Below are positions 3,724 through 27,564 of a stretch of 34,977 nt of DNA, in pieces. The stretch is from Verrucomicrobiota bacterium. Lineage in GTDB: Bacteria; Verrucomicrobiota; Verrucomicrobiia; Limisphaerales; J093. Made by a program: the position numbers and the translations under genes. The stretch lies in contig JAKLFY010000067.1 in assembly GCA_022710935.1 (NCBI GenBank), forward strand, positions 1-34,977, read 5' to 3'. Each line of letters opens with the position of its first letter. Position 1 is the stretch's first letter. The notes below the pieces were generated by a model. It was not told the origin of the DNA and did no database searches. It saw nothing but the letters and a program-made list of their open reading frames with translations.

Positions 3724-4341
3724 TGGCTGCCCGTCACGTTCCCGATCCGACGACACGGAGACATCGAGGTCCTGAAGAAGCCCGTCTGAGATTCGATAGA
3801 TCCAGCCGTGGACTGTGAGGGAAGCCCCCGAGTTCCATGCGTCGCGCACGATGGTTGTGTTGACGACGTTCTGCACTTGTTCGATTACGTTGAGCTCACA
3901 GAGCCTGTCCACCCGACGGTCTGCATCGCTAATCTCGGACAATTCGCGATGCCTCTTGCGCACAACATCCCGCACATGGCCAAGCCAGTTGTCCACCAGC
4001 CCGTGGGGGCATTCCTCGATCGCAGCACGCACACCGCCGCAGCCATAGTGCCCGCATACCATGATGTGCCTGATCTTCAGGACCTGCACCGCGTATTGAA
4101 TCACGGACAGGCAGTTGATGTCCGAGTGAACCACCAGGTTCGCGACATTGCGATGCACGAAGAGTTCGCCCGGGAGCAGCCCGACGATTTCGTTCGCAGG
4201 CACACGGCTGTCCGAACAGCCGATCCACAGGAACTCAGGCGCCTGCTGTCGTGAGAGTTTCTTGAAGAAATCCGGGTCTGCGGCACAGACCTGGTTCGCC
4301 CACTTTCTGTTGTTCTCAAATAATCTCGGAAGCGTCTTCAT
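3721..4341 (-). CDS. beta-class carbonic anhydrase
   Basis: This 206-residue protein is the normal length for a bacterial beta-carbonic anhydrase, which interconverts CO2 and bicarbonate in the cytoplasm. All key residues are present: zinc ligands C42 (in CSDSR, 42-46, with the D44/R46 dyad), H98 and C101 (in CGHYGCGG). The family motifs GELFVHRNVAN (58-68) and the VHGW(IY) strand near residue 178 are also there. The frame stays open far upstream, but homology starts at MKTLPRLFENNRKW, so I place the start at 4341. The gene diverges from the aldo-keto reductase gene 132 bases away, and its TAG stop lies in a dispersed repeat motif. The longer minus-strand frame upstream is only the antisense of the reductase. 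Confidence 0.95.
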   Translation of the reverse strand: MKTLPRLFENNRKWANQVCAADPDFFKKLSRQQAPEFLWIGCSDSRVPANEIVGLLPGELFVHRNVANLVVHSDINCLSVIQYAVQVLKIRHIMVCGHYGCGGVRAAIEECPHGLVDNWLGHVRDVVRKRHRELSEISDADRRVDRLCELNVIEQVQNVVNTTIVRDAWNSGASLTVHGWIYRISDGLLQDLDVSVSSDRERDGQP

Positions 4342-25977: not shown

Positions 25978-25995
25978 GGTGAGAAATGCGGGCTA
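25978..25995 (-). repeat. TAGCCCGCATTTCTCACC motif supplying the stop codon of the DUF4434 gene
   Basis: Read on the minus strand, its first three bases are the TAG stop of the gene ending at 25993. It matches 29076-29093 at 17 of 18 bases and the start of the motif at 3705-3723. Confidence 0.6.
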
Positions 25996-27564
25996 ATGTG
26001 TACGCAGGTACGCCTGGTAATCCTGGTAGAGCCGCACGCTTGCGGGGCCGCCGGGCTGGCGGGTCATTTCGGGCGCGCTCATCATGCCGGGGAATTGGTA
26101 ATGAAGGATCTTCTCGAAGTTGGGGAAGCGGTCAAAGTCGCTGATCAATCCGTCGATCGGACGCGGATGCAACTCGATACCGTTCTTGAAGACGAAGGTC
26201 TCGAGGTCCAGCCACAGATGGCACCCGGCCTCGTCGCACAATGACTGGAGCAACGCCGCCGCCCGCTCACCCGTGAGGTCGCCCTCGGGCATTCGGTGGA
26301 ATCCAAAGGGGCCCAGGATGTCGAGATGGGGCAGCAGTTGGCGATAGGCCGCCTCCGCGCCGCGCAAGCCGTGCGGGTTGGTTGCCAGCAGCACCGGCTT
26401 GTCCGGGGCGTGGCGCCGGACGTGCGCGGTGAAGGCTCGGAAGAACTCGATCATCTCGCGGCGTTGGACCTCAGGATCGCCGCGGTCCGGCGTGTAGAGG
26501 CCGCCGCATTGCTCTCCGCTGACGTACCAGCCGTAGAACGAGGGATGGTGCCCGTAACGCTCCCATAACTCGTCCGCCACCCGGCGATGCCAGGCCAGCG
26601 AGTCGGGCGTGTAATCGAAGAATGCATACATGCCGACACCGGGCATGACGTGCAGACCCAGCCTGTCCGCCTCGTCGAGGATGGTCTCGAGCGGGTCCCT
26701 GGACGCGATGGGCATTCGGGTCGGATAGAGCTTCGACGGGTAGTAGGCCCGCCCCGGATACGTGTCGGGACCGAAGCTGTGCTCGGCGCGATGGACGAAA
26801 TTCTGGAACATCATCGTGATCACCAGGAGACGCTGGTCGGTGGCGTGCATCGCCCGCACCAGCTCGCGCCAGTTCCCATCCGTCATCCGCCCCAATTCCG
26901 CGTTGAACGGTTTTCCCTCGCGCTCGCAATGGTGGTAAAGATCGACCCAGGCGCCGCCCAACCGGCGTCCGGACCGCGCGTCGGAGTCGAGAACCTCGAG
27001 CGGCCGTTCGCACCGCACCGTCACAGAGGAATCCGTGGGATGTGCGACACCGTCTCCCTCACCCGTCCCGCAGAGCGGGACACCCTCTCCCATCGGATGG
27101 GCGAGGGCCGGGGGGAGGGGGCTTTGTCGCGTATGCTGCGTACCGCTCAGCATGTCCTTGGCCCGCGCTGTCAGGATCAGGCGGTGCGGACCGGCCAGCC
27201 CCTGCATGGGCCGCCGAAACCGGATTCCTGCCGCTGACTTTGGGGCCACTTGAAGCGTTGCCTGATGCACACAGCGATCCGGCACTTCCGCGTCCCAATA
27301 GACGGCAACATCGAATGTCTTGGCGGTGTCGGCTTCGTTCCGGACGGCGCCGCGGATGTCGAGGCTGATGAGGTCCGTCACCGGCGACGGGGGTATGAGC
27401 GTCAGGCTGACCGCGCCCTGGGCCCTCGCACCGTTGGACTCGTCCGCTCCGGTCGGAATCGGTCCGATCCCGGCCAGGAGGACCAGGGCAACGGACGCAG
27501 CGCGGCTCAGCCGCAACCAAAGCGGCGGGACCCTCGCACACGTATGGCATACTCTTGGGGTCAC
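25993..27564 (-). CDS. secreted DUF4434-type putative glycoside hydrolase with in-frame repeat insertion
   Basis: This 523-residue exported protein starts at GTG (27564); an upstream ATG is out of frame. A signal-like hydrophobic stretch lies at ~20-40. Residues ~50-135 look like a beta-sandwich (SLTLIPPSPVTDLISLDIRGAV). Residues ~203-515 form a TIM barrel of DUF4434 type: GAWVDLYHHCEREG, WRELVRAMHATDQRLLVITMMFQNF, GLHVMPGVGMYAFFDY and FYGWYVSGEQCGG, where an acidic residue (E of SGEQ) is placed like a glycosidase catalytic acid. Residues ~141-178 (HTRQSPLPPALAHPMGEG, GTGEGDGVAHP) are foreign-looking and are encoded by a palindromic repeat inserted in frame. It is likely co-transcribed with the oxidoreductase gene 65 bases upstream. 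Activity is inferred, not established. Confidence 0.75.
   Translation of the reverse strand: MTPRVCHTCARVPPLWLRLSRAASVALVLLAGIGPIPTGADESNGARAQGAVSLTLIPPSPVTDLISLDIRGAVRNEADTAKTFDVAVYWDAEVPDRCVHQATLQVAPKSAAGIRFRRPMQGLAGPHRLILTARAKDMLSGTQHTRQSPLPPALAHPMGEGVPLCGTGEGDGVAHPTDSSVTVRCERPLEVLDSDARSGRRLGGAWVDLYHHCEREGKPFNAELGRMTDGNWRELVRAMHATDQRLLVITMMFQNFVHRAEHSFGPDTYPGRAYYPSKLYPTRMPIASRDPLETILDEADRLGLHVMPGVGMYAFFDYTPDSLAWHRRVADELWERYGHHPSFYGWYVSGEQCGGLYTPDRGDPEVQRREMIEFFRAFTAHVRRHAPDKPVLLATNPHGLRGAEAAYRQLLPHLDILGPFGFHRMPEGDLTGERAAALLQSLCDEAGCHLWLDLETFVFKNGIELHPRPIDGLISDFDRFPNFEKILHYQFPGMMSAPEMTRQPGGPASVRLYQDYQAYLRTH
27050..27121. repeat. palindromic dispersed-type repeat inside the DUF4434 coding sequence
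   Basis: It contains two adjacent hairpins: GTCCCGC (27065-27071) pairs perfectly with GCGGGAC (27075-27081), and CCCTCTCCCATC (27083-27094) pairs with GATGGGCGAGGG (27096-27107) with one mismatch. CCCTC at the left edge can pair with GAGGG at the right edge. The sequence type (CCCTCTCCCATCGGATGGG) resembles known intergenic palindromic repeats. It is read in frame without a stop. Confidence 0.7.

What the first reader, a model, noticed from the sequence alone, without database searches (positions are those of the whole stretch)
27050..27121. Palindromic intergenic-type repeat read in frame inside a glycosidase-like gene
Two adjacent hairpins occur within the DUF4434 coding sequence and add about 38 residues of foreign-looking sequence between the N-terminal beta domain and the catalytic barrel, without a stop or frameshift. 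This resembles protein-invading palindromic elements known in Rickettsia, and suggests the element can be tolerated as a linker.
Basis: partly seen in the sequence, partly recalled or inferred. Interest (0 to 1): 0.55.

Follow-up and report, generated by a model that had tools for sequence, protein, structure and literature searches.

The report
Mobile palindrome translated inside genes
A 127-base mobile DNA palindrome has landed inside a sugar-enzyme-like gene of an uncultured Verrucomicrobiota bacterium without breaking its reading frame, and relatives of the same palindrome sit, also in frame, inside many other conserved genes of this bacterial order, including genes for vitamin synthesis and DNA repair.

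Summary
The 72 bases are the core of a 127-bp element (27024-27150) flanked by CA dinucleotides. It adds 129 bp, exactly 43 codons, to a DUF4434 gene (minus strand); two orthologues lack just those 43 residues. The element belongs to a TA-flanked MITE family: 19 further related sites in this genome. Its ~30-bp terminal inverted repeats match those of IS630-family insertion sequences in related genomes. Its core is of the BoxC/PIT intrastrand-triplex type known from E. coli. In-frame insertion recurs: RibD is filled here and empty in the genus-mate; a phosphomannomutase-like gene shows the reverse. By my count 11 of 25 core sites in this genome lie in frame inside genes (two provisional, three more unresolved); sites in other genera lie in RecQ, RsmB and a histidine kinase, and one rhodanese protein carries a four-unit tandem array. 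In a sample of one site per genome the rate is 3 of 30. The Rickettsia comparison is supported as 'works like', not as membership. Expression and protein function were not testable. New variant of a known kind.

The parts
25993..27564 (-). Host gene: 523-aa DUF4434 protein with an N-terminal beta domain
   Evidence: ORF; translation; Pfam PF14488 E 2e-27; model; Foldseek best barrel match 4h41, TM-score 0.70 by target length
27024..27150 (+). 127-bp MITE-like palindromic element (R1 orientation, antisense to the gene)
   Evidence: Alignment of copies; covariance model R1 129.1 bits, whole model matched; fold z -3.63
27022..27023 (.). Left copy of the flanking dinucleotide (CA; TA in many copies), presumed target duplication
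   Evidence: 129-bp net insertion from the 43-residue gap in orthologues
27151..27152 (.). Right copy of the flanking dinucleotide (CA)
27022..27051 (+). Left terminal inverted repeat, IS630-type, 8.8 bits against the TIR matrix
27123..27152 (-). Right terminal inverted repeat, IS630-type, 15.5 bits
27065..27081 (+). Small hairpin of the core
27083..27107 (+). Large hairpin CCCTCTCCC...GGGCGAGGG of the BoxC/PIT type
   Evidence: compared with Table 1 of PMC4666352 (passage)
27108..27119 (+). G-rich tract that pairs with CTCCCTCACCC (27054-27064); third strand of the BoxC/PIT motif in the family consensus, degenerate in this copy

Best explanation
The segment is a non-autonomous IS630-derived transposable element (MITE): about 30-bp terminal inverted repeats around a BoxC/PIT palindromic core. 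It was moved by an IS630-family (Tc1/mariner-like) transposase into a two-base target (TA in many copies, CA here). Element plus duplicated dinucleotide is 129 bp, a multiple of three, and one frame of this strand has no stop. So the DUF4434 gene was lengthened by 43 codons in the turn of a beta hairpin of its N-terminal domain and read on as a flexible loop. The same happens to other genes: copies that land in frame in surface loops survive, frame-breaking ones are removed by selection. Shown: the insertion, its exact size, other copies, the empty sites, the IS630-like ends, in-frame copies in other conserved genes. Inferred: transposition by that enzyme, translation of the insert, retained protein function.
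For: Clean 43-residue gap in both close orthologues. 19 further sites in the genome; R1 matches in 87 of 146 genomes searched, at most 24 candidates scored per genome. TA at both ends in 20 of 54 copies (my count of the listing); several near-identical 123-bp copies at different TA sites in G004. 1108-bp IS630-family element in G004 (DDE_3 E 1.2e-37) and six more IS with ends of the same type. 46 of 74 element ends score >= 8 bits on the IS-end matrix, against 0.23% of 9,806 TA-starting 30-mers. Reciprocal filled and empty sites: RibD 129 bp in G000, absent in G001; phosphomannomutase-like gene 153 bp in G001, absent in G000. A further in-frame case with empty paralogous domains. Insert pLDDT < 50 between strands 125-136 and 182-191. 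All four in-frame single-element MITE cases against a mean tolerated-phase share of 0.30 in 32 copies, about 0.008 by chance.
Against: No intact IS630 transposase of this group was found in the window's genome; only fragments at 72-73% identity. The dinucleotide is CA here, not TA, and the RibD site has two different dinucleotides, so the duplication is not exact in every copy. The DUF4434 empty site is known only at the protein level, from orthologues 61 and 52% identical overall. Open frames are expected in G+C-rich DNA, so an open frame is no evidence of selection on the element. Disrupted genes are harder to recognise than in-frame ones, which biases the 4-of-4 count. The RibD model was poor (mean pLDDT 54.6) and says nothing about its insert. 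Everything rests on draft genome assemblies.
Confidence: 0.86

Rival explanations
1. The gene is a pseudogene or is on the way to one; the element landed in frame by luck and the protein is no longer used.
For: One in three lengths keeps the frame and G+C-rich DNA has few stops; the mean tolerated-phase share is 0.30. No G001 orthologue of the DUF4434 gene appears, so it may be dispensable.
Against: No stop or frameshift anywhere in the 523-aa ORF; barrel residues invariant among 11 homologues are kept; this copy of the element has several differences from its relatives, none giving a stop. For RibD and the phosphomannomutase-like gene the filled branch shows no excess of amino-acid changes (RibD 12 nonsynonymous/13 synonymous against 19/18 on the empty branch with outgroup L164; phosphomannomutase 22/25 against 17/16 with L177).
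Confidence: 0.12
2. The hairpin acts on the mRNA rather than in the protein: it causes cleavage, pausing or ribosome bypassing, so the 43 residues are not made or are made rarely.
For: Very stable fold, -70.3 kcal/mol, z -3.63. MITE RNA of Neisseria is reported to be processed by RNase III (PMC2229807, passages).
Against: If the insert were bypassed, neither its length nor stops inside it would matter; yet the recognised intragenic copies are in phase and open.
Confidence: 0.05
3. The stretch is an ordinary lineage-specific linker of DUF4434 proteins that only resembles the repeat.
For: Linkers vary in length among homologues (general knowledge; no call).
Against: The DNA is 88-92% identical to the best other copies over 74-86 bases, matches the covariance model over its whole length, and the gap in orthologues equals element plus dinucleotide.
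Confidence: 0.01
4. The element is a REP/RAYT-type palindrome moved by a REP-associated tyrosine transposase.
For: REP-type repeats are reported from a Verrucomicrobia genome (PMC3733652, passages).
Against: Long terminal repeats that match IS630 ends and TA target sites fit a MITE; a RAYT search was not made.
Confidence: 0.04

Closest known systems
Rickettsia palindromic elements (RPE)
   Same: Palindromic, 105-146 bp, with an open frame; found between genes and in frame inside unrelated conserved genes (as described in PMC2229807 and PMC10969869, passages read)
   Different: Different phylum; IS630-type ends and TA target identified here; BoxC/PIT core; sequence relation to RPE not tested
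TA-flanked bacterial MITEs with in-frame fusions (ERIC, Correia 107-bp, RUP, Coxiella QMITE)
   Same: 100-200 bp, TIRs, TA at the ends, stem-loop RNA; RUP is thought to be moved by an IS630 transposase; ERIC, Correia and QMITE fuse in frame (PMC2229807, PMC5896051, passages)
   Different: Core is a BoxC/PIT palindrome; in-frame copies lie in RibD and phosphomannomutase-like genes; one array is amplified in tandem inside a protein
BoxC / PIT / TM intrastrand-triplex motif of E. coli and over 260 other genomes
   Same: CCCTCTCCC-loop-GGGAGAGGG-CCGGGGTGAGGG, matching type B in Table 1 of PMC4666352 (passages)
   Different: That paper reports no transposase or integrase near its E. coli sites and studies them as intergenic; here the motif is the core of a MITE with IS630-like ends and is often translated in the reading proposed. 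Triplex formation by this copy not tested; its third strand is degenerate
IS630-family insertion sequences
   Same: About 30-bp TIRs of one type and TA target
   Different: No transposase gene in the element; net lengths of 113-172 bp among the better copies instead of about 1.1 kb

Membership tests
IS630-derived MITE | Terminal inverted repeats shared with an autonomous IS630 element | tested here: met
   Window ends 8.8 and 15.5 bits; 46 of 74 ends >= 8 bits against 0.23% background; IS in G004 and six others
IS630-derived MITE | TA target duplication | tested here: inconclusive
   Family: TA at both ends in 20 of 54 copies. This copy: CA on both sides, and no DNA-level empty site for it
IS630-derived MITE | Too short for a transposase; dispersed in the genome | tested here: met
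   127 bp; 19 other sites
IS630-derived MITE | Intact transposase of the same type in the host (desirable, not strictly defining) | tested here: not met
   Only fragments in G000, C258 and C12; the draft assembly may miss IS copies; intact ones in G004 and other relatives
Rickettsia palindromic element | In-frame insertion in unrelated conserved genes plus intergenic copies | tested here: met
Rickettsia palindromic element | Rickettsia host | tested here: not met
   Host is Verrucomicrobiota. Not filed as an RPE
Rickettsia palindromic element | Sequence homology to an RPE family | not tested
   No RPE sequence was compared
BoxC/PIT triplex motif | Hairpin plus third G-rich strand of the published consensus | tested here: met
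   Met by the family consensus; the window copy has changes in arm and third strand
BoxC/PIT triplex motif | Triplex formation | not testable with these tools
   Needs CD/NMR or footprinting
REP/RAYT repeat | Neighbouring or genomic RAYT transposase | not tested
   No search made

The most novel reading that the evidence does not exclude
In this verrucomicrobial order the BoxC/PIT triplex palindrome is a mobile, protein-invading unit. It travels as the core of IS630-type MITEs and of other short carriers, and in some genomes close to half of its copies are translated as disordered loops inside working enzymes. Some copies are then amplified in frame into new repeat segments, as in the rhodanese protein of G001, so that a DNA-structure repeat becomes a source of protein parts. 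This would also give the widespread BoxC/PIT motif a means of spread, which the 2015 study did not find.
Probability: 0.35. Interest if true: 0.75.

Novelty: new variant of a known kind. Interest (0 to 1): 0.62.

Why it matters
Protein-coding palindromes are best known from obligate intracellular Rickettsia, where weak selection is often given as the reason (recalled, not looked up). Here the same pattern appears in large-genomed verrucomicrobia, with a nameable carrier and sister species that serve as before-and-after pairs. This makes the old question of how a gene survives such an insertion testable: the same enzymes exist with and without the insert. It also links the widespread BoxC/PIT motif to a possible transposition route.

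Tried and rejected
Rfam search of 26800-27400: only chance-level hits (Antizyme_FSE 18.7 bits against gathering 40; serC 17 against 35). Considered and set aside: ordinary linker (contradicted); gene-disrupting insertions - candidates with both flanks on one strand (L094, L102, L142, L113, L120, L143, L122, L100, L110; L081, L085, L087, L089, L090; L317) were translated and read by eye as gaps between genes or gene ends. L086 looked in frame but NCBIfam gives two stretches of one methyltransferase family with the element between them, which I read as two neighbouring genes, so it was dropped. L121, L117, L275 and L276 have long open frames over the element but no Pfam match and were not counted; L127 and L273 have a domain only downstream of the element, and L103 (AMP-binding) has its best stretch after it; none was counted. 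Kinase L107 against PDB: no match at E <= 1e-20. RibD structure model poor. The G001 DDE_3 hit L191 has unrelated ends; L241 gave ends out of register and was left out of the matrix. Foldseek full-length GH2 hits for the window model have rmsd of about 14 and TM-scores below 0.4 and were not used.

Counting rules. 25 core sites in G000 = the distinct sites at E <= 1.6e-4 (20, window included) plus five new ones; the weaker match at C188 was not examined. 11 counted in frame: C224, C218, C22, C79 at 74020, C146, C79 at 18931, C232 at 5852, C232 at 1675, C124, and provisionally C239 and C258 (their domain matches stop near the element). Unresolved: C108, C187, C240. Of loci L065-L090 (best R1 hits of other genomes) 25 of 26 were scanned (L068, at a contig end, was not): 8 in-frame candidates, 7 after dropping L086.

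Full report
WHAT IS THERE. The window lies in G000, a 7.52-Mb draft genome of 259 contigs. Its genus-mate G001 corresponds to Verrucomicrobia bacterium ADurb.Bin006: the lengths of contigs such as MWFF01000164 equal those of G001 (lineage). The minus-strand ORF 25993-27564 encodes 523 residues with a DUF4434 barrel, PF14488 at 204-500, E 2e-27. Lining up other copies from the same genome shows that the repeat goes on for some 27 bases on each side, as imperfect terminal inverted repeats. The element is 27024-27150, 127 bp, flanked by CA on both sides. The whole folds at -70.3 kcal/mol with z -3.63, and none of 200 shuffles did as well.

IT IS AN INSERTION. The two closest orthologues, G138 contig 57 and G013 contig 59 (61 and 52% identical overall), align along the protein except for a gap of exactly 43 residues at the element. 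That is 129 bp: the 127-bp element plus one dinucleotide. The insert begins on a codon boundary. In an AlphaFold2 model (mean pLDDT 71.2, 11 sequences) residues 140-178 have pLDDT below 50 and lie between strands 125-136 and 182-191, the last hairpin of the N-terminal beta domain. The best barrel-sized PDB match is 4h41, a putative alpha-L-fucosidase (TM-score 0.70 by target length).

COPIES. In G000 the 86-bp query finds 20 distinct sites at E <= 1.6e-4, the window included. A covariance model R1 from nine full copies matches 87 of 146 genomes, 24 candidates scored per genome at most. Re-searched over 60 sources it gave 100 matches, both strands of many sites included; 54 long matches were examined further. 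By my count of the listing, 20 of 54 have TA at both ends, and most others TA, CA or TG at one or both. In G004 several 123-bp copies at different places are nearly identical and flanked by TA, which suggests recent movement.

WHAT MOVES IT. A DDE_3 search of four genomes gave an IS630-family transposase in G004 (343 aa; DDE_3 E 1.2e-37) inside a 1108-bp element with ends TACTGACAGGTCAGCAGGATAGTCTACATT and TACTGATCAGTCAGCGGCATAGGCTACACT. Six more IS with ends of this type are in G010, G013, G025, G049, G021 and G046. The family name IS630 is mine, from the DDE_3 match, the size and the TA ends. A matrix of these 14 ends, first two bases not scored, gives at least 8 bits to 46 of 74 ends of the 37 best copies, against 0.23% of 9,806 TA-starting 30-mers; the window's ends score 8.8 and 15.5. 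G000 itself has only fragments of this transposase, 72-73% identical. So the carrier is known by its ends; an active enzyme in this genome is not shown.

THE CORE. The family consensus CCCTCTCCC-ATCGGAT-GGGAGAGGG-CCGGGGTGAGGG is type B of the TM/BoxC/PIT motif in Table 1 of Holder et al. 2015 (PMC4666352: abstract and passages read). They found it in more than 260 genomes, saw triplex formation in vitro, and report no transposase or integrase remnants near the E. coli sites. The hairpin pattern occurs in 104 of 146 genomes here, up to 258 per genome, with controls of 0 or 1. In other genera the core has other surroundings, for example arms reading CATGAACC (L074, L076, L083), so the IS630-type MITE is one carrier among several.

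OTHER IN-FRAME COPIES OF THE MITE. (1) RibD, G000 contig 218: RibD_C E 2.9e-41 spans the insert. G001 has the gene at 89 and 85% identity without it, a 129-bp gap. Twelve relatives in alignment A5 lack it and the conserved deaminase columns are intact. It is the only full-length G000 match listed. (2) A phosphomannomutase-like gene in G001 contig 98, insert between domains I and II; G000 has it at 92 and 90% identity without the 153 bp. (3) G000 contig 22, in the opposite orientation; similar N-terminal domains elsewhere in G000 and G001 lack it. (4) G001 contig 195: a DUF1573-rhodanese protein with one copy before the rhodanese domain and a 90-bp tandem array of 3.8 units after it, all in one 628-aa frame; the G000 relative lacks the array. 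For (1) and (2) changes were sorted onto branches with outgroups, synonymous/nonsynonymous. RibD filled branch 13/12, empty 18/19 (outgroup L164; other outgroups: L162 14/16 and 21/22, L163 17/8 and 17/30, L169 17/13 and 13/17; a fifth, L167, gave no usable frame). Phosphomannomutase filled 25/22, empty 16/17 (L177), or 22/17 and 16/22 (L178). No relaxation is seen, though changes before the insertion are included.

CORE-ONLY COPIES IN FRAME. Coding scores on both flanks plus an open frame point to further cases. In G000: an RHS protein, a Ser/Thr kinase, DNA methyltransferases on contigs 79, 124 and 232, and a BPTD_3080-family restriction enzyme (791.1 bits, cut-off 800). In other genera: a Thioredox_DsbH protein (L065), RecQ (L072), RsmB (L073), a histidine kinase (L075), a DUF7133 protein (L077), an RHS protein (L079) and an FG-GAP protein (L084). 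Against the RecQ chain 1oyw the insert is residues 406-443, in the zinc-binding region; against the RsmB-type chain 1sqf the extra segment lies between residues 199 and 280. Counts: 11 of 25 sites in G000 (two provisional, three unresolved), 7 of 25 best R1 hits of other genomes, and 3 of 30 in a sample of one pattern site per genome. The last sample is the least selected, so the G000 share should not be taken as general. The coding scores use a codon table trained on these loci, not gene calls.

WHY IN FRAME. Of 32 longer G000 and G001 copies, 22 have a net length divisible by three; averaged over six phases, 0.30 of placements would keep a gene open. The four single-element MITE cases (window, RibD, phosphomannomutase-like, contig 22) being all in frame has a chance of about 0.008 on that basis, but disrupted genes are harder to see. 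Open frames are expected at this G+C content, so I do not claim that the element is selected for coding. The simplest reading is filtering: insertions in loops that keep the frame persist.

COMPARISON AND NOVELTY. In-frame MITE and palindrome insertions are known: RPE, ERIC, Correia (PMC2229807, passages), RPE numbers (PMC10969869, passages), QMITE (PMC5896051, passages), a claim in Pseudomonas aeruginosa (PMC4496055, passages). Ogata 2002 was not held. My nine library searches listed no paper that describes in-frame BoxC/PIT insertions, an IS630-BoxC MITE, or protein-coding palindromes in Verrucomicrobiota; only listings and the passages named were read, and the library lacks most subscription journals. 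I file it as a new variant of a known kind: known behaviour, new host group, identified carrier type, and a core not reported before in that role as far as these searches go.

Noticed in passing
L130:3896-4236 (G001 contig 195): Tandem array of 3.8 copies of a 90-bp core unit, in frame inside a DUF1573-rhodanese protein, so the palindrome has become a 30-residue protein repeat.
   Followed up: yes
L302:1675-1699 and L108 near 4061-4092 (G000 contig 232): Two restriction-modification genes about 4 kb apart, a BPTD_3080-family restriction enzyme and a DNA methyltransferase, both carry in-frame core copies.
   Followed up: partly
L135, L136, L137, L138, L139 (G004): Several nearly identical 123-bp copies at different sites, mostly TA-flanked, a sign of recent movement in that genome.
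   Followed up: partly
L074, L076, L083: In other genera the BoxC-type core is framed by CATGAACC / GGTTCATG arms, perhaps a second carrier family.
   Followed up: no
G083 contig 1: More than ten near-identical IS630-family transposase genes in a one-contig genome, about 31% identical to the G004 enzyme; no BoxC-type pattern in that genome.
   Followed up: no
L102 (G000 contig 226): An element begins at the very end of a toxin-antitoxin-like (ParE-type, by eye) gene, changing its C-terminus.
   Followed up: no
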